DNA of 40,371 nt, taken from Myxococcales bacterium. Lineage in GTDB: Bacteria > Myxococcota_A > UBA9042. Below the pieces are notes generated by a model, which did not search any database, was not told the DNA's origin, and saw only the letters and a list, made by a program, of their open reading frames with translations. The position numbers and the translations under genes were made by a program. This document shows positions 4,789 to 40,371 of this stretch, in pieces; positions within the stretch are counted from its first letter, which is position 1, and each line of letters starts with the position of its first letter. Location of the stretch: NCBI GenBank assembly GCA_009692465.1, contig SHZD01000032.1:1-40371 (forward strand), read 5' to 3'.

Positions 4789-4953
4789 GATTTCGTTCAA
4801 ATTGGCCGTCTTGCGCCAGCCGATTTCGCTCAAATTGGCGGTCTTGCGCCAGCCGATTTCGCTCAAATTGGCCGTCTTGTGCCAGCCGATTTCGCTCAAA
4901 TTGGCCGTCTTGCGCCAGCCGATTTCGCTCAAATTGGCCGTCTTGCGCCAGCC
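4789..4953. repeat. 33-bp tandem repeat, five copies
   Basis: Five head-to-tail units of exactly 33 bp start at 4789, 4822, 4855, 4888 and 4921. Each begins GATTTCGCTC and ends GCGCCAGCC, and copies differ at only one or two bases. The array is in the 340-bp gap between the sigma gene and the rlmD stop codon. One frame on each strand stays open through it because 33 is a multiple of 3, but neither frame continues rlmD nor has a credible start, so I treat it as noncoding. The remainder of 4625-4964 shows nothing recognisable. Confidence 0.95.
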
Positions 4954-4964
4954 GATTCTTCAGA

Positions 4965-18344: not shown

Positions 18345-18484
18345 TAGGGCCCGAGCAGGAGTTACTCGATCGATCCCCGATAGAAACGGAGCGTCGAGTC
18401 GGCTTGTAAAGCCGCGAGTCAGCGACCCACCAAGCAAGCATTGGGCCGGTGTGCAAAATCGACTTGATTTTGCACGGGCCCTTA
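18345..18484 (-). repeat. structured intergenic element, copy B
   Basis: Closing stem AGGGCCCG (18346-18353) with CGGGCCCT (18475-18482), ending in the stop codon of the Cys-rich lipoprotein gene (18482-18484). Inside: an ACTCGATCGAT segment shared with copy C, AACGGAGCG (18385-18393), hairpin CGGCTT-GTA-AAGCCG (18400-18414), core GCGACCCACCAAGCAAGCA (18422-18440) and a perfect 10-bp hairpin GTGCAAAATC-GACTT-GATTTTGCAC (18451-18475). It is the cleanest copy of the family. It may act as 3' end structure for the lipoprotein mRNA. Confidence 0.82.
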
Positions 18485-21400
18485 CTTGTCCGGTCGAACC
18501 ATGATGTCGTCGACAAAGATGCCGGCGCCGCTGTTGACACTGCAATCAAGCGAGTCAAAGTTGAAGACCAGCACCACGTTCTTGCCATTGAAGACCGTGA
18601 TGTCGAACGCCACATCGGCCCATTTCTTGTACGCCGAAATCTTGTTGACAACGTACTCTTTGGTGAGGGCACCGCCGCCAATTTCTTTAACAATGACGGT
18701 AAACTTGTCGTAACTGCCGGTCTCGGCGTCGACGAGGGACTTAAAGCGCAGCCAAGTGACGGCGCCGACAGCGGCTGAGGCTTTTACATTGAACACTGCC
18801 GTCTTAGCGGTGCCAGCCACTTTGGTTGTGCTGGCCGGGCAGGTGAAGTTATAGGCTGTCGCCACTAGCGAACTGAAGTTGAGCGAACAGTCGCCAGAAA
18901 AGAACGCCGCGCCGGCATTGGCGTCTACGCCCCAACCGATCGCATTGGCATTGGCGATAGTAAAGGCCGAGGCGTTGCCGCAAGTCACCATTTCGGCATA
19001 GGACGGCGCGGCGATCGTATCTAACGACAAGTCCTCGATGAACCACCCTTTGCCCTCATTGGCAGTGGAGTCTACGGAATCAAAACGGAAGCGCAGTTGC
19101 ACCTTTTTGCCCTTGACCCCAGTCAAGTCGACCCACGACCACCGCCAGCCCTTGCCGTGCTGCACGCTGGCATTGAGCGTGGAGGAAATGGGCATAGTCA
19201 CGAACGCATCGCCAGTGACCTGCACATAGCGAGCGTCGTACGATCCGCCGAATTCTGTGTCCACATATTCCTTGAACAGCAGCGTCACCGGTCCAGCGCC
19301 CGCATTGGTCAAGTCGATCACCGGCGCCATGGCGTTTGCTTGAGTCAGACCACTGAAATTAATGCCGTTATTCATGTTGAGCGAAATCTTGCTGGCCACC
19401 GTCGTATTGACCGTCGTCACGTCGGGCGTGCTGTCAATGGCAAAGCCGGTGCCAGAGGTGTTGGGCGCGCTGAATTGCCAGCCGAAGCTGTTGTTTTCAA
19501 AAGGCTCCGTCCACCAAGAACTCGGGGTAATGGCGACAATGGGGCCGCCATACACGGTGATTTGGTCGACGAATGCGCCGACGCCGGCGTTGCCGATGCC
19601 ATCGAGGGTGTCAAAGTGGAAACGAATCTGGAATTTTTTGCCAATCATGGAGGTCAAGTCCATGGCATTCAGGGTCCACGCCTTAACGCTGGGCAGCTGT
19701 TGCGAAATTTTGGTGACAAAGCCGTCGCTGCTCAGTTCAACCCAACAGCGGTCCATGGTCGGCTCCTGAACGTCGAGCCACGAGTAGAACGCCAACGTCA
19801 TCTTGGCCCCAGTGTAAGCGCTGGCATTGACAAAGAACTTGCCGAGGCCGTCCGCGATGATGTGCGTACCGTCGGCGTAACCGGTGCCGTTGTTCACATT
19901 GAGGGAGGCGGCGCCGGTCAGCTTGCCCGGAGCGGCCGGGCTGGCGTCGGTCCCCCACTTGACGCCAGCGCTGCCGCCGACGTTGACCCAGGCGGCATCG
20001 CCGAAGTCGATATTGAAATTGGCCGGCAATGGATACACCGGGCACACCACAATGTCGGTGGTCAGCACAACTTTGCAGGCGGCGGTCGTTGCATCACACG
20101 AATCGATGGTGCACGGATTGCCGTCGTCGCATTTCTTAACCGGGCCAGCGGCGCACTTGCTGTCCTTGCACACGTCGGGCCCGGTGCACTTGGCGCCATC
20201 GTCGCAGGCGGCGGCATTGGCCAGGCTGGCGCACTTCTTGTTGGCATCGTCGCAGCTGTCGTTGGTGCACAGGTTGGCGTCGTCGCAATTGCGCGCCTTG
20301 GCGACCTCGCATTTGCCTAGGTTGCAGGCGTCCGTTTCGCTGCAGAATTTGCCGTCGTCGCACACCGCCGTATTGTTCACGACCTTGCAACCAGCGATTT
20401 TATCGCAGGAATCGGTAGTGCACACATTGTTGTCATTGCAGTTCAGGTCTGCCGCGCCCTTGCAGGCGCCGACGCCATTGCAGGTGTCGTTGAGCGTACA
20501 GGCGTCGCCGTCGGCACAGGGATTGGTGTTGTTGGCGGTGCTGCACACGTTGTCCTTGCAGCTGTCCGTGGTGCACGGGTTGTTGTCGTCGCAGTTCTTG
20601 CCGATGCCCGCGCATTTGCCTGCGGAGTCACACTTGTCGGTATTGGTGCAGGTATTGCCGTCATCACAGACGCCGCCGGCTGCCGCCGGTTTGTAGGCAC
20701 AGCCAGTCTTGTCGTCGCAAGTATCGATGGTGCAAACATTTTTGTCGTCGCAATTCAGCGTCGGCTTGCCCTTGCAGGCGCCGACGGCGCAGGCGTCGCT
20801 GGTGGTGCACACATTATTGTCGGTGCACCCGGCGGTGTTGTTGACGGCCACACAGCCCTTGGTCTTGTCGCACGAATCATCGGTGCACAGGTTGTTGTCG
20901 TCGCACACTTTTGGTTTGGTGCCGGCGCAGGTGCCCGCGGTGCAAATATCGGTTTCGGTGCACGGGTTCTTGTCGTCGCAGTTGGCGGCTACGTTCTCAT
21001 GCACACAACCCGCACCGGCGTCGCAACTGTCTTTGGTGCATACGGTGCCGTCTTCGCATTTATCCACAATTGCGCTGGGTTGGCAGAGTTTGTCTTTGCA
21101 CAAATCGCCGACCGTACATTTACTGCCGTCTTCGCATTTGGCGGTGTTGGCGTTATTCGTACAGCCCTTGGCGACATCGCAGACGTCGTCCGTGCACGGG
21201 TTGCCGTCGTCGCAGTTGATACTGACGCCGCCGCACTTGCCGGCCTTGCATGCGTCTTTTTGGCTGCAGACGGTGCCATCGTCGCACAGAGTGTCGTCGG
21301 CCAGCGCTGCGCTGGCGCATTTGCCGGTGGCGTCGTCGCAAGCGTCCAAAGTGCACTGATTGCCGTCGTCACACGGGATGGGCGTGCCTACGCACACGCC

Positions 21401-22834
21401 ACCTTGACAGCCGTCTTTGCTGGTACACGCGGAGTCATCGGAGCAAGTAGTTGTATTGTTAGTAAATTTGCAAATTCCGGTTGCTTTGTCACATAGGTCA
21501 TCGGTGCAGTCGTTCTTGTCGTCGCACTTGATCGCCTCGCCGCCGCCGCACTGCTTGTCCTTGCACACGTCCTTTTGCGAACACGGATTGCCGTCGTCGC
21601 AGGGGTCGGCGTTGGCGACCGCACTGCACACATTGTTGGCACATTCCTCGTTGGTGCACGGGTTGCCATCTTCGGCGCACACCTTTCCGATGCCTTTGCA
21701 GGTACCCGCGCTGCACTTGTCGCTGATGGAGCAACTATTGTCATCGTCGCAAGCAGCGGTGTTGTCATTGGTGGCGGTGCAGCCGGCCGCGATGTCGCAA
21801 CTATCTTTGGTGCAAGCGTTTTTGTCGTCGCAGACCACCGCCTTGCCCTCACATTTGCCGGCAGCGCACGAGTCCGTGGTCGTGCAGGCGTTGCCGTCGT
21901 CGCATGTCGAAGCGTCCGGCGCTGGCGTCTGCACGCAGCCGGTCTTGGTGTCGCAAGTGTCCACTGTGCAAGCATTCTTGTCATCGCACACCGTGGGTGT
22001 GCCGGCCGCACACAACCCAGCAGCGCACAGATCGCCTTTGGTGCAGGCGGAGCCGTCTTCGCAGGCGGCGATGCTATTGGTGTGGGTGCAGCCCTTGGTG
22101 CCCTTGACGACCTCGGTGATGCCGCAGCCGTCGTCGGTGCAGGGGTTGCCATCGTCGCACTTGTCCGTAGCCCCGGGCACACATTTGCCGTCTTTACAGG
22201 CATCGGCCAGCGTACAAATGTCATTGTCGGAGCACTGAACCGTGTTGACGGCATTGACGCAGCCTTTGGTCGCCTCGCAACTGTCGTCGGTGCATTCGTT
22301 CTTGTCTTTGCAGTCTTTGGTGGCTCCAGTGCATTTGCCAGCGACGCACTCGTCTTTCTCGGTGCAGGCGTTGCTGTCATCGCAACTGGAGGCGTCCGCG
22401 GCGGGTTTTTCTGCGCACTTGCCAGTGGCCACGTTGCAAGTCGAGACGGTGCAGGCGGCAGCGGGAGCTGGACAATCCTTGTCTTCTTTGCAGCCGGACT
22501 GAACATCGGGCGTAACCGCGGTGTCGCCCGTGGTTGGCGTGTCGCCCGTGGTTAGCGTGTCGCTCGGGGCTACGGCGTCGCTGTCATCTTGCGGCGTGCT
22601 GTCACCTGTGGATGCAGCGTCTGTTCCAGTGACGGCGGTATCGACGCCGACCGTGTCAGCCGGTGAAGCCCCATCGGCAACATTGACATCGGTTGCGCCC
22701 GCGCTGTCGGCCGCAGCGGCGGCACCCGCATCAGCCGCTTCGCCGCCGCCCACACAAGCAGCGGTAATGGCGACCAAAGCGAAAGGCAGCCCAACGCGGG
22801 TAATGCGCATGGCAAGAGCAGTCCAGAGACACAT
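18482..22834 (-). CDS. giant Cys-rich repeat lipoprotein with three MAM-like domains
   Basis: 1450 residues from ATG 22834, which has GGAG at a 7-nt spacing; frame is open to 22873. The signal region (MRITRVGLPFALVAITAAC) ends in a probable lipobox Cys. A ~90-residue Ala/Asp/Thr linker with GDTPTTGDT repeats follows. Then come roughly twenty ~43-residue Cys-rich repeats of the form CDDGNPCTDDxCD..xGC...NxxxCDDGxxCTxxDxCxxGxCxG. The C-terminal ~500 residues hold three beta-sandwich domains, each ending in a shared pattern: QIRFHFDTLDG...NAGVGAFVDQI, QLRFRFDSVDS...NEGKGWFIEDL and VLVFNFDSLDC...NSGAGIFVDDI. It is likely a surface adhesion or stalk protein. Such repeats are characteristic of myxobacterial-type secreted proteins. 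Confidence 0.85.
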   Translation of the reverse strand: MCLWTALAMRITRVGLPFALVAITAACVGGGEAADAGAAAAADSAGATDVNVADGASPADTVGVDTAVTGTDAASTGDSTPQDDSDAVAPSDTLTTGDTPTTGDTAVTPDVQSGCKEDKDCPAPAAACTVSTCNVATGKCAEKPAADASSCDDSNACTEKDECVAGKCTGATKDCKDKNECTDDSCEATKGCVNAVNTVQCSDNDICTLADACKDGKCVPGATDKCDDGNPCTDDGCGITEVVKGTKGCTHTNSIAACEDGSACTKGDLCAAGLCAAGTPTVCDDKNACTVDTCDTKTGCVQTPAPDASTCDDGNACTTTDSCAAGKCEGKAVVCDDKNACTKDSCDIAAGCTATNDNTAACDDDNSCSISDKCSAGTCKGIGKVCAEDGNPCTNEECANNVCSAVANADPCDDGNPCSQKDVCKDKQCGGGEAIKCDDKNDCTDDLCDKATGICKFTNNTTTCSDDSACTSKDGCQGGVCVGTPIPCDDGNQCTLDACDDATGKCASAALADDTLCDDGTVCSQKDACKAGKCGGVSINCDDGNPCTDDVCDVAKGCTNNANTAKCEDGSKCTVGDLCKDKLCQPSAIVDKCEDGTVCTKDSCDAGAGCVHENVAANCDDKNPCTETDICTAGTCAGTKPKVCDDNNLCTDDSCDKTKGCVAVNNTAGCTDNNVCTTSDACAVGACKGKPTLNCDDKNVCTIDTCDDKTGCAYKPAAAGGVCDDGNTCTNTDKCDSAGKCAGIGKNCDDNNPCTTDSCKDNVCSTANNTNPCADGDACTLNDTCNGVGACKGAADLNCNDNNVCTTDSCDKIAGCKVVNNTAVCDDGKFCSETDACNLGKCEVAKARNCDDANLCTNDSCDDANKKCASLANAAACDDGAKCTGPDVCKDSKCAAGPVKKCDDGNPCTIDSCDATTAACKVVLTTDIVVCPVYPLPANFNIDFGDAAWVNVGGSAGVKWGTDASPAAPGKLTGAASLNVNNGTGYADGTHIIADGLGKFFVNASAYTGAKMTLAFYSWLDVQEPTMDRCWVELSSDGFVTKISQQLPSVKAWTLNAMDLTSMIGKKFQIRFHFDTLDGIGNAGVGAFVDQITVYGGPIVAITPSSWWTEPFENNSFGWQFSAPNTSGTGFAIDSTPDVTTVNTTVASKISLNMNNGINFSGLTQANAMAPVIDLTNAGAGPVTLLFKEYVDTEFGGSYDARYVQVTGDAFVTMPISSTLNASVQHGKGWRWSWVDLTGVKGKKVQLRFRFDSVDSTANEGKGWFIEDLSLDTIAAPSYAEMVTCGNASAFTIANANAIGWGVDANAGAAFFSGDCSLNFSSLVATAYNFTCPASTTKVAGTAKTAVFNVKASAAVGAVTWLRFKSLVDAETGSYDKFTVIVKEIGGGALTKEYVVNKISAYKKWADVAFDITVFNGKNVVLVFNFDSLDCSVNSGAGIFVDDIMVRPDK

Positions 22835-23003
22835 AGTTTGACTCCAAGGAAATTCTGCGCGACTTGTCAGCAAGTTTGCGAATCTATTTGCGCTTCGCCA
22901 CTGGTGCCGGAACCAACCCGAGCGCTTATTGTACGACCGGCGCGCTGCGGGTCAAGCAATGACGCATTGCGTTATTTGCCTGCAAGCCGATAAGCCGCCA
23001 AAG

Positions 23004-23202: not shown

Positions 23203-23311
23203 GGTCGTTGCCACCTCGATAGGGTTGGCGTAGGCTTGGCCCCACCGCAGTTGGCGTTCGGGCCACCAGCCAAGCGACAGGCCGGCCAACCAGCAGACGA
23301 CAGGAGGCCTT

Positions 23312-24070
23312 GTGGCGCGGACCGTGCGAATTTCAGTGCTCGGCACCGACATGCGCCTGCAGACGGACGACAGCGATGAGTTTGTGCAGCGCGTCGCCAC
23401 TGCCGTCAACGAGCGAGCAGCGCTCATCAAGCAGCGCGGGTTGCCGCCTCCACAATTGGCCTTGTTTGCTGCTTTGCAGCTTGCGGAAGAGCTCGAGCGA
23501 CTGCGCGACGCCCAGACCGAAGTGAAGGCCGCCGAGGCCCAGTTGCGCGATAGCCAGGCCCAACTGCACGATACCCTGTCCCAGCTGCGCGATACCTTGT
23601 CCCAGCTGCACGATACCCACACCCAGCTAGGCAATGCCCACACCCAGCTAGGCAATGCCCACACCCAGCTTCAAGTTGAGAATTCCCAGTTTCGCGACGC
23701 AAATACCGAGTTGGGTGATACCAATACTGAGCTGCGCGATGCCATCTCTGAGCTGAGCGGCGCTATCACAGAGCTTCGCGCTGGCAATACTGAGCTTCAA
23801 GATGAGAATTCCCAGCATCGCGCTGCCAATACCCAGATTCAAGACGTGAATTCTCAGCTTCGCGCCGCCAATACTGAGCTCGACGGTGGTGCGACTCAGT
23901 TGCGCGGCGCCAACTCCAAGCTGGTCGATTCCCACCGTCAGTTTCGTGCGCAAACAGCGGCGCAAGTTCGCCACTTCGCAGATGAAATGCTGGTGCAAGT
24001 CCGAGCCATTTCGACGTCTGCCAGCAGGCCCGACAACCACTGCCAGCCGCGCGAACGAGACACGCCATGA
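23312..24070 (+). CDS. zapA: ZapA-like cell division protein with expanded coiled coil
   Basis: 252 residues, GTG start with AGGAGG 5 nt upstream. Residues 1-70 match the ZapA head (VRISVLGTDMRLQTDD, VATAVNERAALIKQRG, LFAALQLAEELERL), which binds FtsZ and stabilises the Z-ring. Normal ZapA is ~100 residues with a short coiled coil. Here residues ~70-215 are about twenty heptads of the form xQLxxxx, encoded by imperfect 21-bp repeats (for example two near-identical THTQLGNAH units at 23614-23670). The last heptads drift to TELRxAN. The stop overlaps the next start as ATGA, indicating coupling. Confidence 0.8.
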   Translation: MARTVRISVLGTDMRLQTDDSDEFVQRVATAVNERAALIKQRGLPPPQLALFAALQLAEELERLRDAQTEVKAAEAQLRDSQAQLHDTLSQLRDTLSQLHDTHTQLGNAHTQLGNAHTQLQVENSQFRDANTELGDTNTELRDAISELSGAITELRAGNTELQDENSQHRAANTQIQDVNSQLRAANTELDGGATQLRGANSKLVDSHRQFRAQTAAQVRHFADEMLVQVRAISTSASRPDNHCQPRERDTP

Positions 24071-24693
24071 GCACCGCGACCTCCCCAGTGGCGACTTTGG
24101 CCGCCGCAACGTTGCCTGCGGTAGTGCCGATCGATAAGGCAGGTTGGCGGGCAGCCGCGGATTCGGTGGGGCGCAACCGCTCACCGCTCCTGCGAAAACG
24201 CCACGCGACGGTATTAGCTGTGCATGTTTGTTCGCTGGCGCAGGCCCTTGGCGCCCGCCTAGTCGGCTTATACAGCCCGATTGGCGCTGAGGCGGACACC
24301 CGCGATCTCGCCAATGCCCTGCTGGTTGCCGGCTATCAGTTGGCCTATCCGCGCTTGCTCCCCGATGGCTCTGCGCTGCAGATGGTGCCGTGCGCCGGGC
24401 CGAGCGCGTTGGTCCGGCGACCGCGAGCGCGCCTGTTGGAGCCGTCAGGGATGGCCTGCGATCCCGCCGATTTGGATTTGATCGTGGTGCCGACGGTGGC
24501 GCTGAGTACGGATGGCACGCGCTTAGGTCGCGGCGGTGGCCACTACGACCGCTATTTGCCCAAGATGCGCGCCGAAACGGGCACAGTCGCCGCCGTGGCC
24601 GCTGGCTGTGTGTGGCCTTGGCAACCTCAGTTAGCCCACGATGTCCGCCTGCGCTGGGCGTGTACCGAAAACGGCTTGTTTGTGATCGGTTAA
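24067..24693 (+). CDS. ygfA: 5-formyltetrahydrofolate cyclo-ligase
   Basis: ATP-dependent conversion of 5-formyl-THF to 5,10-methenyl-THF. The family signature GTRLGRGGGHYDRYLPK is intact near residues 155-170. YSPIGAEADTRDLANAL and AYPRL mark the Rossmann-like core. 208 residues, normal length, with ~25 extra Ala/Val-rich residues at the start. ATG 24067 overlaps the zapA stop by 4 bp. The zapA-ygfA pairing is conserved in proteobacteria. Confidence 0.93.
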   Translation: MSTATSPVATLAAATLPAVVPIDKAGWRAAADSVGRNRSPLLRKRHATVLAVHVCSLAQALGARLVGLYSPIGAEADTRDLANALLVAGYQLAYPRLLPDGSALQMVPCAGPSALVRRPRARLLEPSGMACDPADLDLIVVPTVALSTDGTRLGRGGGHYDRYLPKMRAETGTVAAVAAGCVWPWQPQLAHDVRLRWACTENGLFVIG

Positions 24694-24700
24694 GACGGCT

Positions 24701-25591
24701 GTGCGACTGATACCATTGGCAATCTGCGGCGTTGTGGTCGGTTTGTGCGCGTGTGCGGCACCGGTTGCCGTGCAGCCGACGCTCACGGTTGCCGACGCCG
24801 TTGGCGACCAAACAGGCGGGCAGTTTGGTGATGGCTCCGCGGCGACCGGTGCGGATCAAATGGCAGCGGCCGCAACCGACGCCAAGGCGCAGGTCGGCGA
24901 TGTCAAGGCCGACAGCAAAGCCGACGGTGGTAGCACCGGCAAAACCGATTCGGCCGTTGCCGATAGCGAATTCGACAACGGCATTACCGCACCCAAGGTC
25001 ATTTGCGGCGACTCCTTTTGCGCGCAGGGCCAAGAGACCTGCGACTCGTGCGAATCGGATTGCGGCCCATGCAAACCCGTGTGCGGCGACGGCAAATGTG
25101 GCACCGGCGAGTCGTGCAGCACCTGTGCCAAAGACTGCGGCGGCTGCGCCGGCGAATGCGGCAACGGCTACTGCGACCCGACTGAAAACTGCGCAACCTG
25201 CTCAGGGGATTGTGGAACCTGCGCACCTGGCTGCGGCAACGCCACCTGTGACAAGGCCACCGAAACCTGTGACGACTGTCCGATCGACTGCGGCAAGTGC
25301 AGCAACGAACCGTGCGACCCCTATACGTCTAAAGGTTGCAAAGACTTTGAACAGTGCTTTCCCTATAGTGGCGGCGACTTGGTGTGCATTGGCGCTGGCA
25401 AGCTGGCCAAAGGCCAAAAATGCCTGCCGCTGGTCGACTGTCAGAAGGGCTTGATTTGCATTAATTCCACCTGCTCCACCATTTGTGACGCCAGCGGCAA
25501 ACAACCGCAGTACGGTTGCCCCAGCGGCAAGCAATGCGTGCAAGTCGGCGCCAAGGGCCAGTTGAGTGCCGGCGTCGGTGCTTGCCTGTGA
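24701..25591 (+). CDS. Cys-rich repeat lipoprotein
   Basis: 296 residues, GTG start 8 bp after the previous stop. Signal peptide MRLIPLAICGVVVGLCACAA carries a plausible lipobox Cys (GLCAC). An Ala/Asp/Lys linker (~20-95) precedes four repeats of CGDGxCxxxExCxxCxxDCGxC (CGDSFCAQGQETCDSCESDC, then CGDGKCGTGESCSTCAKDC, CGNGYCDPTENCATCSGDC, CGNATCDKATETCDDCPIDC). Another Cys-rich module follows (CDPYTSKGCKDFEQCFPY ... CPSGKQCVQVG). It is probably an exported surface protein held by disulfides. The repeats differ from those of the giant lipoprotein. Function unknown. Confidence 0.78.
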   Translation: MRLIPLAICGVVVGLCACAAPVAVQPTLTVADAVGDQTGGQFGDGSAATGADQMAAAATDAKAQVGDVKADSKADGGSTGKTDSAVADSEFDNGITAPKVICGDSFCAQGQETCDSCESDCGPCKPVCGDGKCGTGESCSTCAKDCGGCAGECGNGYCDPTENCATCSGDCGTCAPGCGNATCDKATETCDDCPIDCGKCSNEPCDPYTSKGCKDFEQCFPYSGGDLVCIGAGKLAKGQKCLPLVDCQKGLICINSTCSTICDASGKQPQYGCPSGKQCVQVGAKGQLSAGVGACL

Positions 25592-25607
25592 ACGGGCCGT
25601 CACCCTG

Positions 25608-26270
25608 ATGCTGGACATCAAGCGCCTACAACTGGGCCCCATGGCCAACTTCGTGTATTTGTTGGCTCCGGTCGATGGCGAGCGCTTGGCCGTGGTCGAC
25701 CCTGGGTGGGATGCGCAGGCGATTTTGGCCGCCGCAGCGCGATCGGAGCGGCAAATTACGGATATTATTCTCACTCATCACCACCACGATCACCGCAATG
25801 CCGTTGAAGCCCTGCTGAGCGCCGGTTCAGCGCGGGTGTGGGTCAATCGCGGCGATGCCGAGTGGCTGGGCGGCACCGGCTGGACCAGTGACTGCCAATG
25901 GCTTAGCAGCGGTGACTGCATCGAGTTGGGCGGCGCCGCCAGCGTGCAGGTCATTGGCACACCTGGCCACACGCCCGGCTCGCAATGCCTGCTGTGCACC
26001 ACGGCCCAAGGTCCGATGCTGTTGACCGGCGACACCCTGTTTATCGATGGCTGCGGTCGCTGCGATTTGCCCGGTGGCGATCCAGCGGCGCTGTACCACT
26101 CGCTGTATGGCATGCTGGGTGACATCGACGGCCGCACCCAAGTGTGCCCCGGCCATGACTACGCGCCGCTGCCCCAAGCCTCGCTGGCCGAGCAGCGCGC
26201 TACTAATCCGTATTTGCATTTTGACAGTGTTGCTGCGTTTGTCGGCTATCGGATGCGCCCGAGAGCCTAA
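25608..26270 (+). CDS. metallo-beta-lactamase-fold hydrolase, glyoxalase II-like
   Basis: 220 residues from ATG 25608 (MLDIKRLQLGPMANFVYLL). An in-frame start at 25566 would overlap the preceding gene. Metal motif THHHHDH sits near residues 56-62, then GTPGHTPGSQ, TGDTLFIDGCGRCDLPGGDP and a closing PGHDYAP, so all metal ligands are present. The GR-DLPGGDP loop is typical of the hydroxyacylglutathione hydrolase/persulfide dioxygenase/YcbL branch; the exact substrate cannot be told. It is probably cytosolic, and lies 16 bp after the Cys-rich lipoprotein gene. Confidence 0.87.
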   Translation: MLDIKRLQLGPMANFVYLLAPVDGERLAVVDPGWDAQAILAAAARSERQITDIILTHHHHDHRNAVEALLSAGSARVWVNRGDAEWLGGTGWTSDCQWLSSGDCIELGGAASVQVIGTPGHTPGSQCLLCTTAQGPMLLTGDTLFIDGCGRCDLPGGDPAALYHSLYGMLGDIDGRTQVCPGHDYAPLPQASLAEQRATNPYLHFDSVAAFVGYRMRPRA

Positions 26271-26400: not shown

Positions 26401-26610
26401 CGCAGTTCTACTGGCACCGCGGCAATTCTACTGGCACCGCGGCAATTCTACTGGCACCGCGGCAATTCTACTGGCACCGCGGCAATTCTACTGGCACCGC
26501 GGCAATTCTACTGGCACTGCGGCAATTCTACTGGCACCGCGGCAATTCTACTGGCACTGCGGCAATTCTACTGGCACTGCGGCAATTCTACTGGCACTGC
26601 GGCAATTCTA
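26401..26610. repeat. 20-bp tandem repeat, ten and a half copies
   Basis: Unit GGCAATTCTACTGGCACCGC repeats with a strict 20-bp period from 26401 to 26600; the first copy is a CGCAGTTCTA variant, and CACCGC/CACTGC alternates in later copies. A half unit at 26601-26610 ends the array. Each unit junction creates CCGCGG. The period is not a multiple of 3, so coding is unlikely. The last half unit supplies the CTA that is the minus-strand TAG stop of the VWA-FHA gene. The rest of the gap 26271-26400 shows nothing recognisable. Confidence 0.96.
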
Positions 26611-28170
26611 CTTGAGCCAGAACTGCAACTCAGAATCGCCGAGCTTGAGCCGGTCGCCGTCCTTGAGGAACACTTTGTTCACTTGCTGGCCATTGACCAG
26701 CACCTTGTTCTGCGAGTTTAGATCTGCGATTTCATAGCGCATTTGATCAATCTTGAGCGCAGCATGGCGGCTGGAGACGCTGGCGTCGGGCAGCACAATC
26801 GTATTGCCCTTGATCCGCCCCAAGGTGGTGACGTCATCGTACAGGTAGAATTCTTGACCGGCACACGGCCCGGCTATGCAAGCCAAGCGGCCACGGTGGG
26901 GCCCATCGGGTTTGGCCGGCCCAGTCGCCACCGCTTCTGCCGGGGCCTCGCCCTTGCGCTTGGCCACAAAGACGATAAACGCAATCAACAGCGCCAAGCC
27001 CAAGATGCCGCCGATGATCATGCCCGCATATTTTAGGTACATTTTCCATGGCGTTGCCGGCTGCGGCAACCGGACATCGTTGTAGACGCCCTCCTCGGTG
27101 GCGCCGTCCTTGAGCTTGGCCTTGACCACGATATTGTACTTGAGATCGTCTTTGCCTTTGATCGCCTCGCCATGGGTCGGCAATTCGGCCAACTTGCCGC
27201 GGACGATGTATTGCTTCTTGATCCGCGATCCAATCGAGTCCCATGCGCCGGCCACCTGCACCAATTCTTTGACGTTTTTGTAGACGCCATTGGTGTCATT
27301 GGCAGTCGACTGCAGTAACGTCATGTATTTCTTGTCGTCGGGCGCAAACGCAATGACCAGCACTCGGATTTGCTGATCGGAGTAGCGCTCAATGACGTTC
27401 TTGCGCGCCTTTTCCAGTTTGGCGACATCGGCCTCGCGGTCCTTGCCGTCCGACATCAGCACCAAATACTTGCGCCGTGTTTGCGCCAGTTTCTCAGCGT
27501 TGTCGGTCATATAGGCCAACGCCTTGTCGATGGCGGTCATCGCTTGTGGTTTGAGCGACTTCTCGGCTTTTTGCGCACCTTGAATCTGGGCATTGCCTTC
27601 ATCGTCGGCCTGCGGGCCTTTGGCGTTCTCGATGGCTTGCTGGGCGCCGGAAAAATTGGACGACCAAGTACTGATCGGCTCACTGGCATTGCTGTTGTGG
27701 TATTGCAGCACCGAGATCTTGTCATTGCCGGACAGCATCTTGACCAACCGGACCGCGCCTTCCTTTTCCGACTGATAAACCGAGTATTCCTCGCCCGCTT
27801 GCAACTGGTAGTTGTTGGAAGCATTCATCAAGATGCACACGGCCACCGGCTCTTTGGCCGCATCTGCCGTCTCAATGGTGACGTCGGTCAGCGTGAGCTT
27901 TTGGCCGCTGGCAATGATCTCCAAGTCGCCCGGCTCGACCTTCTTCATCGGTTCGCCGTCGGGGTCCAAGATATCGACATTGATGGTGATGATTTGCGTC
28001 GACGGCTCGAAGCTGACAATGTCGATCAGCACCCGTTTTTCGCTTTCGGCAAAGGTGGCTGGCGCCAACATGGAAGTGGCAAACACCACCAACGTCAGCC
28101 ACGCACCAAAGCGGGCGAACCATTTGCGCTGAGTCAAGCGACGCTTAAAGGCCATTGTTGAATTACTCAT
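26608..28170 (-). CDS. VWA-TM-FHA membrane protein
   Basis: 520 residues; ATG 28170 with GGAG 6 nt upstream. Signal peptide ends near ATFAES (residue ~41). Residues ~90-320 form a von Willebrand A domain (VAVCILMNASNNYQ, RKYLVLMSDGKDRE). The MIDAS DxSxS is NASNN, so metal binding may be lost. A transmembrane helix lies near 385-410 (MIIGGILGLALLIAFIVFVA). The cytosolic C-terminus is an FHA domain (TLGRIKGNTIVLPDASVSSRHAALKI) that reads phospho-Thr. It could pass an outside signal to phosphoproteins inside. It is the last gene of the minus-strand run that contains the eCIS genes; a role with that machine is inferred from position. Confidence 0.85.
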   Translation of the reverse strand: MSNSTMAFKRRLTQRKWFARFGAWLTLVVFATSMLAPATFAESEKRVLIDIVSFEPSTQIITINVDILDPDGEPMKKVEPGDLEIIASGQKLTLTDVTIETADAAKEPVAVCILMNASNNYQLQAGEEYSVYQSEKEGAVRLVKMLSGNDKISVLQYHNSNASEPISTWSSNFSGAQQAIENAKGPQADDEGNAQIQGAQKAEKSLKPQAMTAIDKALAYMTDNAEKLAQTRRKYLVLMSDGKDREADVAKLEKARKNVIERYSDQQIRVLVIAFAPDDKKYMTLLQSTANDTNGVYKNVKELVQVAGAWDSIGSRIKKQYIVRGKLAELPTHGEAIKGKDDLKYNIVVKAKLKDGATEEGVYNDVRLPQPATPWKMYLKYAGMIIGGILGLALLIAFIVFVAKRKGEAPAEAVATGPAKPDGPHRGRLACIAGPCAGQEFYLYDDVTTLGRIKGNTIVLPDASVSSRHAALKIDQMRYEIADLNSQNKVLVNGQQVNKVFLKDGDRLKLGDSELQFWLK

Positions 28171-38326: not shown

Positions 38327-40371
38327 GGAGCCCCCTTCGTTCGCGCTCACGCTTGATACGTACCATTACCGAACGGGCGATCTTGTTCGCCAACGCTTCG
38401 ATATCTTGAACATTACTCGAATGATCTTCGGATTGCTGACGGCCTTTTTCGCCGCCGCCGCCCTGACCGGACTTGCCGCCACCGACTCCGCTCATCGGCA
38501 AACCCAGCGTCGGATCGCCGCCGCTAGTCGCAATGCTTTCGGATAAGGGCTTGGCTGCTGCGGCAGCCACAATGGCCTGCGCAGCTGGCGCTACCAATGG
38601 CAACATGTTCGCGGCCGGCGACGACGTCACCGACAACACCCGAGTCATCGCCGCTGCCTGCGTGCCCTTAAGCGACGCTGTCGCCCCGCCCGTGCGACCG
38701 GCGGCTTCGACCATCGTATCGAGGCTGGAGGCTGGTTGAATCAAAGCCTGACCGCTCTGAAAATCGGCAGGCATTGTCATGCCGTCGCGAGCAACCGCAG
38801 ACGCCGCTCCGGGGCCAACGAAACCGCGCGCCACTGACGAAGCGTGACCGCGACCCAGCGAAGCCGTCCGTCGCGCTGTCACTGAAGCACTGAGGCGATC
38901 GGCACCGCGAGCGGCGGTTGGCATCGGTGCTGCTTCGCCAAAGAACCAGCCGTCGCCGCCGGTCAGGCCGACGAGTTCGCTACCGCCAAGCTGGCTACTT
39001 CCATAACTAAAGGTCGAGCCGGCGTAGCCTGAGCGCGCTGCGCTGCGCGCCGTCGACATCTTGGTGGCAAACGCGCCGCGCGGTGTGGCATGTAGCCATG
39101 CTGAGCGCCGTTGTTGGCCCACCAAATTGCGACCGCGACTCAGGCCTGCCGGCGCAAATTCGTGCATGCGCACGCCAGTCAGTTTGGCGCCAGTCAGTTT
39201 GGCGCCAGTCAGTTTGGCGCCAGTCAGTTTGGCGCCAGTCAGTTTGGCGCCAGTCAGGCTAGCTCCAGCCGAGCCCTTGGGCGCGGCTGGACTAGCTGCG
39301 CGGGCCGAGCTTGGCGCTGCCGTCAGGGTCGAGAATTCCCCAACGTCGCCGTCTGCCTTTGGCGCCAGCAACTCGCGGGGGCTCTCGGCTGCAGCCAACT
39401 GTCGGCTGCGCGTGCTCGCGAAGCCAAAAAGGTCACCGCTAGTCAGGGCCGACAAGGCGGCAAGGCCAGTCAACACCACTTGATCGCCGACACCGGCTGT
39501 CTTCAGCGGTGCCAATGTGCGCGCCGGCCCTCGCGCCGGGCTAGTAGATTGGGCACTTTTCGAATCCAACGCCTGCGAGGTCGGAGCCACCGCTGACTCG
39601 CCACCGCCGGTATTGGATTGAAGCAACTCGCCTCTAGGTGTTGCCGCCCTAGCCAATTGCGCCACAACCGAGCGGGCAACATCGCCGCGACCCAAGAAGC
39701 GCGCCACGAAGGCTGCGGCGGCGTCAGTCGGCAGATCCAAGCGCCGTTCGCCCAAGGCCGCCATGATCGCGCGCAGAGCCTGCGGGGTATCCGCACCCAA
39801 AGCAGCGGGCAGCGCCCGTTGAACCGTTTTGCCCGGTTGGCTGGCAAATTGAGCTTGAGCACGTTCTGCGCGCGCACTGCGATCCTGACGCGTAGTGGTC
39901 AAAGCTCTGGCTGCAGGCACGGTGTCGCCGGCGTCCAAGCCTGCAGTTGCTGGTTCAACCGCAGCTAGCAACTCCCCTGCTCGTTCGCCACGACTGGCAC
40001 CGAGCCCGCCAACAGCACCCGCTGCGCGCGACACAGTCCTTGTTCCACGAATCGCGGCCGCAGAAGACAGCGACGGGGTTGCCTTTTGCAGCCAAGCGGT
40101 CAATGCGTCTGGCGTGCCGCCAGGCCGGGCCGCCAGCACACCCAAATCGCGCAAGCCAGCCAAAGCCGCCAACATCGGCGCGGCGACAGTGGAACCACCC
40201 GCGCGCATCGCCACGCTTGCTCGCTCGTAGGCTTGCGCAAACGCCGTCAATGCCGCATGTGCTCCTGCTGCTGCCGGGGCGAGGCTTCGTTTGCCTGAAC
40301 CGGCGCCACTTTTGCCTGAACCGGCGCCACTTTTGCCTGAACCGGCGCCACTTTTGCCTGAACCGACGCCA
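38319..40371 (-). CDS. Ala-rich eCIS-associated protein, 5' end cut by window edge
   Basis: The frame is open without a stop to the right edge, so the gene starts outside the window; 683 codons are visible. Most of it is Ala/Ser/Gly/Thr-rich and apparently unstructured. It has two in-frame repeats: GAGSGKS units (40293-40371) and LTGAK pentapeptides (39174-39255). A Gly-rich stretch (GVGGGKSGQGGGGEKG) leads to a charged C-terminal helix (VQDIEALANKIARSVMVRIK, RERERRGLHV). That helix resembles the conserved C-terminal tail of proteins encoded just before the LysM gene in other eCIS clusters, from my recollection of the family. The role is unknown; an assembly or loading factor is possible. Confidence 0.65.
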   Translation of the reverse strand, partial: GVGSGKSGAGSGKSGAGSGKSGAGSGKRSLAPAAAGAHAALTAFAQAYERASVAMRAGGSTVAAPMLAALAGLRDLGVLAARPGGTPDALTAWLQKATPSLSSAAAIRGTRTVSRAAGAVGGLGASRGERAGELLAAVEPATAGLDAGDTVPAARALTTTRQDRSARAERAQAQFASQPGKTVQRALPAALGADTPQALRAIMAALGERRLDLPTDAAAAFVARFLGRGDVARSVVAQLARAATPRGELLQSNTGGGESAVAPTSQALDSKSAQSTSPARGPARTLAPLKTAGVGDQVVLTGLAALSALTSGDLFGFASTRSRQLAAAESPRELLAPKADGDVGEFSTLTAAPSSARAASPAAPKGSAGASLTGAKLTGAKLTGAKLTGAKLTGAKLTGVRMHEFAPAGLSRGRNLVGQQRRSAWLHATPRGAFATKMSTARSAARSGYAGSTFSYGSSQLGGSELVGLTGGDGWFFGEAAPMPTAARGADRLSASVTARRTASLGRGHASSVARGFVGPGAASAVARDGMTMPADFQSGQALIQPASSLDTMVEAAGRTGGATASLKGTQAAAMTRVLSVTSSPAANMLPLVAPAAQAIVAAAAAKPLSESIATSGGDPTLGLPMSGVGGGKSGQGGGGEKGRQQSEDHSSNVQDIEALANKIARSVMVRIKRERERRGLHV
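39174..39255 (-). repeat. 15-bp in-frame tandem repeat
   Basis: Unit GCCAGTCAGTTTGGC (plus strand) repeated about 5.5 times with near-perfect identity; it encodes LTGAK on the minus strand. The A-x-L-x-x spacing resembles pentapeptide repeats, but the run is too short for a proper pentapeptide-repeat helix. Confidence 0.93.
40293..40371 (-). repeat. 21-bp in-frame tandem repeat at right edge
   Basis: Units start at 40293, 40314, 40335 and 40356; the last is cut by the window edge. Each encodes the heptapeptide GAGSGKS on the minus strand. The array continues beyond the window to an unknown length. Confidence 0.93.

What the first reader, a model, noticed from the sequence alone, without database searches (positions are those of the whole stretch)
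23312..24070. ZapA with a repeat-expanded coiled coil
The head is canonical but the tail is about twenty heptads encoded by 21-bp repeats, more than doubling the usual protein length. A long ruler on an FtsZ cross-linker would change filament spacing in the Z-ring.
Basis: seen in the sequence. Interest (0 to 1): 0.52.

Follow-up and report, generated by a model that had tools for sequence, protein, structure and literature searches.

The report
ZapA with twenty inserted heptads
One uncultured bacterium carries a version of the cell-division cross-linker ZapA whose rod has been lengthened by exactly twenty seven-residue repeats, which would let it join FtsZ filaments over a much greater distance than the usual short ZapA.

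Summary
Window 23312-24070 (+) encodes a 252-aa ZapA (Pfam PF05164, 40.5 bits, cut-off 23.8), the only one found in its genome, directly upstream of 5-formyl-THF cyclo-ligase. Two of its five sampled congeners encode 100-aa ZapA in the same gene order. Against these, the long protein differs by a clean internal insertion, not a terminal tail: residues 68-207, exactly 140 aa or 20 heptads (window 23513-23932). It lies between the head with proximal helix and the distal helix that aligns with the E. coli tetramerisation residue I83. AlphaFold2 predicts one helix over residues 46-231 (congener: 46-93). The insert is found nowhere else in the genome. Third-position similarity at lag 21 shows it grew by local tandem duplication. 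Absence of proline and retained core leucines suggest selection for a coiled coil. In a survey of 52 genomes of the class, the other 45 ZapA proteins read are at most 126 aa, bar one of 184 aa with a non-coiled tail; none in the phylum sample matched it. Best reading: a long-reach FtsZ cross-linker, adding about 21 nm per arm. That function is inferred. Rivals are tolerated repeat expansion and a ZapB-like scaffold. New variant of a known kind.

The parts
23302..23307 (+). Shine-Dalgarno-like AGGAGG, 4 nt before the GTG start
   Evidence: read from the sequence
23312..23512 (+). ZapA head and proximal helix, residues 1-67
   Evidence: Pfam PF05164 hit; 51 of 67 residues identical to congener G002; predicted beta-beta-alpha-alpha start
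23513..23932 (+). insert of 140 residues, 20 heptads of 21 bp, residues 68-207
   Evidence: boundaries by comparison with G002 and G004; TRF; one predicted helix
23933..24010 (+). distal helix, residues 208-233, the segment that in short ZapA carries the equivalent of E. coli I83 (here V219)
   Evidence: 11 of 26 identical to G002, 10 of 26 to G004; mapping on the alignment
24011..24070 (+). C-terminal 19 residues, low confidence, and stop codon
   Evidence: pLDDT under 50 from residue 231
24067..24693 (+). 5-formyltetrahydrofolate cyclo-ligase gene, overlapping zapA by 4 nt
   Evidence: Pfam PF01812, 84.2 bits; same order in congeners
24701..25591 (+). cysteine-rich protein, next gene in the conserved order
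   Evidence: 69 and 80% identity to congener loci
25566..26270 (+). metallo-beta-lactamase-fold hydrolase, end of the conserved order
   Evidence: Pfam PF00753, 86.2 bits; 68-69% identity to congener loci

Best explanation
This is the genome's ordinary ZapA with a lengthened stalk. Its head pairs and binds FtsZ; the pair of helices leaving the head runs as a parallel two-stranded coiled coil through 20 extra heptads (leucine at d, mostly asparagine, histidine or isoleucine at a); and the conserved distal segment joins two such dimers end to end, as in other ZapA tetramers. The result is a dumbbell with arms about 21 nm longer each. Head-to-head distance would grow by about 42 nm if only the distal segments overlap, or about 21 nm if the four-helix overlap runs along the repeats. 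It would cross-link FtsZ filaments, or clusters of them, over a longer reach. Shown: the head family, the insertion, its length, its local duplication origin and the predicted helix. Inferred: expression, oligomer geometry, FtsZ binding and the effect on the Z-ring.
For: Only ZapA match in the genome, conserved gene order with congeners, good start signal. Insertion of exactly 20 heptads, with head and distal segment kept. The core columns continue from the head-proximal helix (L57, L61, L64) through the insert; the E. coli residue needed for tetramers (I83; PMC7246612, passages) aligns to L79 in congener G002 and V219 here, beyond the insert. AlphaFold2 helix 46-231, block pLDDT 89-98 from residue 61 to 190, against 46-93 in the congener. 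Zero proline in 140 residues: 7.8 expected in neutral simulations along a tree of the units, zero in 0.27% of 3000 runs; zero stops, zero prolines and at least 19 hydrophobic d positions together in 0 of 3000. pN/pS between units 0.70; pN is lowest at the Q/E, L and S/T columns. FtsZ in the same genome starts MF, the Phe2 hook for ZapA (PMC12216130, passages; sequence).
Against: No expression, oligomer or binding data. Asparagine, histidine or glutamine at many a positions makes a weak coiled coil. E. coli head residues R13 and E51 are T and P here (also changed in the congener), so FtsZ contacts cannot be read off. pN/pS of 0.70 shows weaker constraint than the head (pN 0.161, pS 0.571 against G002). 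Zero stops alone is not significant (P 0.21), nor is d-position hydrophobicity alone (P 0.06). The simulations start from the units' own consensus. One draft genome; no second strain.
Confidence: 0.58

Rival explanations
1. Tolerated repeat expansion: replication slippage lengthened the helix in phase, the protein still works, and the extra length has no role. Selection only removes breaks in the helix.
For: The window is repeat-rich (15 merged arrays in 40 kb, 3.7 per 10 kb; pooled class loci 2.2; congener loci 5.9 and 2.9), and other arrays nearby are near-perfect. pN/pS between units is 0.70. No other surveyed ZapA in the class has the insert.
Against: The units are old: synonymous difference between units 0.56, about that between this head and the congener's (0.57), yet no proline, stop or frame break accumulated. 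A 20-heptad change in a cross-linker's length is unlikely to be without effect (inference).
Confidence: 0.25
2. ZapB-like scaffold: the repeats do not space FtsZ filaments but form an inward-reaching coiled-coil layer or a binding surface for a partner, doing in one protein what ZapA with ZapB (or ZauP) does elsewhere.
For: The repeat stretch also matches Pfam ZapB just over its cut-off (33.2 against 31.5 bits, 3 stretches). In E. coli ZapB lies about 40 nm inside FtsZ (PMC4388696, passages), of the order of the added reach.
Against: 87 families match this protein at E up to 1, and the 25 shown are mostly coiled-coil families, so the ZapB match is not specific. No partner was sought or found.
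Confidence: 0.12
3. Assembly or gene-model artefact.
For: Draft assembly of 294 contigs; repeats are where assemblers err.
Against: The units differ from one another, one frame stays open over 420 bp with the homologous segment after it, and gene order matches two congeners.
Confidence: 0.05

Closest known systems
ZapA of E. coli, K. pneumoniae, P. aeruginosa (4p1m, 9isj, 1w2e, 1t3u)
   Same: head family, fold of the head, helix leaving the head, distal segment with hydrophobic residue at the I83 position
   Different: those solved chains are 104-123 aa; this one is 252 aa with 20 inserted heptads
3hnw, uncharacterised 138-aa chain with a ZapA head
   Same: ZapA-like head by profile, E 3.1e-8, with residues running beyond the matched part
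   Different: at most about 40 residues beyond the match; no heptad repeats were examined there. Its source (Eubacterium eligens) and a long coiled coil are recalled, not from a call
H. pylori fucosyltransferases FutA/FutB with heptad repeats
   Same: variable number of heptad repeats acting as a molecular ruler (2 to 17 heptads; PMC2583950, passages)
   Different: an enzyme, unrelated family; there repeat number varies between isolates, which could not be tested here
ZapB
   Same: all-coiled-coil Z-ring factor (PMC4388696, passages); weak Pfam match of the repeats
   Different: separate protein; match is of the kind any coiled coil gives

Membership tests
ZapA | profile match to the ZapA head over the curated cut-off | tested here: met
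   40.5 bits, cut-off 23.8
ZapA | head fold of solved ZapA | tested here: met
   best Foldseek matches are all ZapA: 2mmv, 1w2e, 1t3u, 4p1m, 9isj, probability 1.00, though E-values are 0.0017 to 0.024
ZapA | C-terminal helix with tetramerisation segment | tested here: met
   distal 26 residues match congener at 11 of 26; V219 at the I83 position; tetramer formation itself not tested
ZapA | short length (about 80-126 aa in the class); a common rather than a defining property | tested here: not met
   252 aa against 79-126 aa in 44 of the 45 other class proteins read
ZapA | FtsZ binding and bundling | not testable with these tools
   E. coli R13 and E51 not conserved here or in the congener
ZapB | profile match | tested here: inconclusive
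   33.2 bits over cut-off 31.5, but 87 families match at E up to 1

The most novel reading that the evidence does not exclude
A natural lengthening of an FtsZ cross-linker by a whole number of heptads, inserted between its FtsZ-binding and tetramer-forming parts, sets an unusually wide spacing of FtsZ filaments or clusters (tens of nanometres) in this species. Because the similar repeats allow neighbouring registers, repeat number could be a tuning knob for Z-ring architecture that evolves by slippage.
Probability: 0.25. Interest if true: 0.7.

Novelty: new variant of a known kind. Interest (0 to 1): 0.45.

Why it matters
ZapA is treated as a rigid, short dumbbell, and models of how it aligns FtsZ filaments rest on that shape. 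A natural version about 21-42 nm longer, with both end parts kept, is a ready-made test of whether cross-linker length sets filament spacing, bundling and Z-ring order: the same head can be assayed with 0 to 20 heptads in a laboratory strain.

Tried and rejected
Terminal tail: rejected, since the congeners' distal segment follows the repeats. MAFFT alignments placed the congeners' distal segment mostly at the start of the insert instead and so hid this; the ungapped placement at 208 is my choice, supported by 11 of 26 against 7 for the next best slide. Repeat imported from elsewhere in the genome: rejected; no other DNA match better than E 0.047 and no close protein match (genus). A 6S RNA between zapA and the cyclo-ligase, as I recall for E. 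coli: no Rfam match in the window at gathering thresholds, and the genes overlap. PDB search with the head alone gave polyubiquitin chains on top; each repeat scored about 4 bits, so chance sums. A co-varying FtsZ linker: the FtsZ here is about 493 aa against about 469-482 in the four congeners read whole, a modest difference not pursued (sequences, lengths counted by hand). Strain comparison: not possible with the collections open to me. Literature: searches for ZapA with coiled-coil/heptad, Myxococc, Clostrid, and spacing terms listed no paper that I recognised as describing a lengthened ZapA; I read titles and abstract starts only there.

The phylum survey is partial: one search found ZapA in 303 of 377 genomes but printed only part of the matches. 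Every printed match with an open frame of 200 aa or more was either among the class loci or fetched. In one search (55 of 79 genomes of one family) all 16 with an open frame of 181 aa or more were fetched and read. Start codons were chosen by rule, so lengths may be off by some residues. An earlier version of the class script read minus-strand loci in the wrong orientation; its minus-strand rows were discarded and redone. One class match (G041, cut by a contig end) was not fetched; one (G039, 79 aa) runs off its contig.

Full report
Observation. The ORF at 23312-24070 (+) starts with GTG after AGGAGG, encodes 252 aa, and its stop overlaps the start of a 5-formyltetrahydrofolate cyclo-ligase gene. 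Pfam ZapA matches residues 5-91 with 40.5 bits (cut-off 23.8). It is the only ZapA match in the genome.

Relatives. One search covered 52 genomes (own, genus, family, class): 46 have ZapA (one search covered the same 52). I read 46 proteins from 45 of these genomes. Besides the window's, 44 are 79 (cut by a contig end) to 126 aa, and one (G016, 58% complete genome) is 184 aa with an alanine-, glycine- and aspartate-rich tail, not heptads. In the genus the other five are 91, 91, 99, 100 and 100 aa. In a phylum draw, 303 of 377 genomes have ZapA. Of 20 printed matches chosen for long open frames, the longest protein is 183 aa. In one large family, 55 of 79 genomes match, and the 16 with the longest frames give 94-201 aa. 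By eye the longest ones in both sets end in proline-, glycine- or charge-rich tails, not heptads. So a long coiled-coil ZapA was not seen elsewhere in this sample; the printed list is not complete.

Anatomy. Between them lie exactly 140 residues, 20 heptads. Standard multiple alignment placed this gap differently. Gene order zapA, cyclo-ligase, cysteine-rich protein, hydrolase is the same in both congeners.

Origin. Similarity at lag 21 exceeds synonymous-codon shuffles (0.639 against 0.587, z 4.2, 0 of 2000; lag 42, 20 of 2000; lag 63, 67 of 2000; lags 84 and 105 not significant), which points to DNA-level tandem duplication. The insert has no other copy in the genome or genus. The unit before it (LERLRDA) already has the repeat's LRDA, so it is a plausible seed. 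Units differ at synonymous sites by 0.56, about as much as this head from the congener's (0.57), so the expansion does not look recent.

Selection. pN/pS between units is 0.70, with the lowest pN in the columns of Q/E, L, S/T and D. Neutral simulation gave, for a star model, P(no proline) 0.0003 and P(no stop) 0.13; for a tree of units, P(no proline) 0.0027, P(no stop) 0.21, P(at least 19 hydrophobic d) 0.06, all three together 0 of 3000. This supports keeping an unbroken helix; it does not show that length matters.

Structure. AlphaFold2 with 30 sequences gives strands 3-9 and 12-18, helix 22-40 and a single helix 46-231 (mean pLDDT 86.2, pTM 0.44). The alignment has almost no depth in the insert, so the helix rests on the sequence itself. 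Congener G002: helix 46-93 (mean pLDDT 93.2). Foldseek's seven best hits are ZapA chains. The a/d core (columns 0 and 3) runs on from L57, L61, L64; after 211 the core moves to columns 0 and 4 (V219, F222, M226), as in the congener (L79, F82, L86). The insert therefore extends the head-proximal frame and leaves the distal one alone. Asparagine at a with leucine at d favours parallel dimers; that is recalled knowledge. At 0.1485 nm per residue (recalled value) the insert is 20.8 nm.

Mechanism. ZapA forms a dumbbell tetramer whose heads bind FtsZ (PMC12754632 and PMC12216130, passages) through a central four-helix bundle assumed rigid (PMC6917738, passages). A mutant blocked in tetramer formation (I83E) does not complement (PMC7246612, passages). 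The insert lies between the FtsZ-binding and tetramer-forming parts, so the simplest reading is longer arms and a longer bridge. Whether the Z-ring is changed is untested. Rivals are tolerated expansion and a ZapB-like scaffold; the repeats do pass the Pfam ZapB cut-off narrowly, which I read as coiled-coil cross-match.

Verdict. A true, rare variant of ZapA. The heptad-ruler principle is known from H. pylori fucosyltransferases (PMC2583950, passages), and a solved ZapA-headed chain of 138 aa exists (3hnw), so longer ZapA-like proteins are not without precedent elsewhere.

Noticed in passing
window 26402-26612: 20-bp tandem array, 10.6 copies, 97% matches, between the ends of two convergent ORFs.
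   Followed up: no
window 39173-39257 and 40290-40371: Near-perfect in-frame arrays (15 bp x 5.7, 21 bp x 3.9) in one long minus-strand ORF, coding LTGAK and SGKSGAG repeats.
   Followed up: partly
window 4789-4957: 33-bp array, 5.1 copies, 96% matches, giving LAQDGQFERNR repeats in a minus-strand ORF.
   Followed up: partly
window 18482-22873: 1463-aa minus-strand ORF with many cysteine-rich DDGNxCTxDxC-type repeats; congener loci hold related sequence.
   Followed up: no
L054 (G000 contig C98): FtsZ of the same genome is about 20 aa longer than in the nearest congener G002, with a His/Ser/Gly-rich stretch in the linker.
   Followed up: partly
L030 (G016) 1489-2043: 184-aa ZapA with a long non-coiled alanine-, glycine- and aspartate-rich tail.
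   Followed up: no
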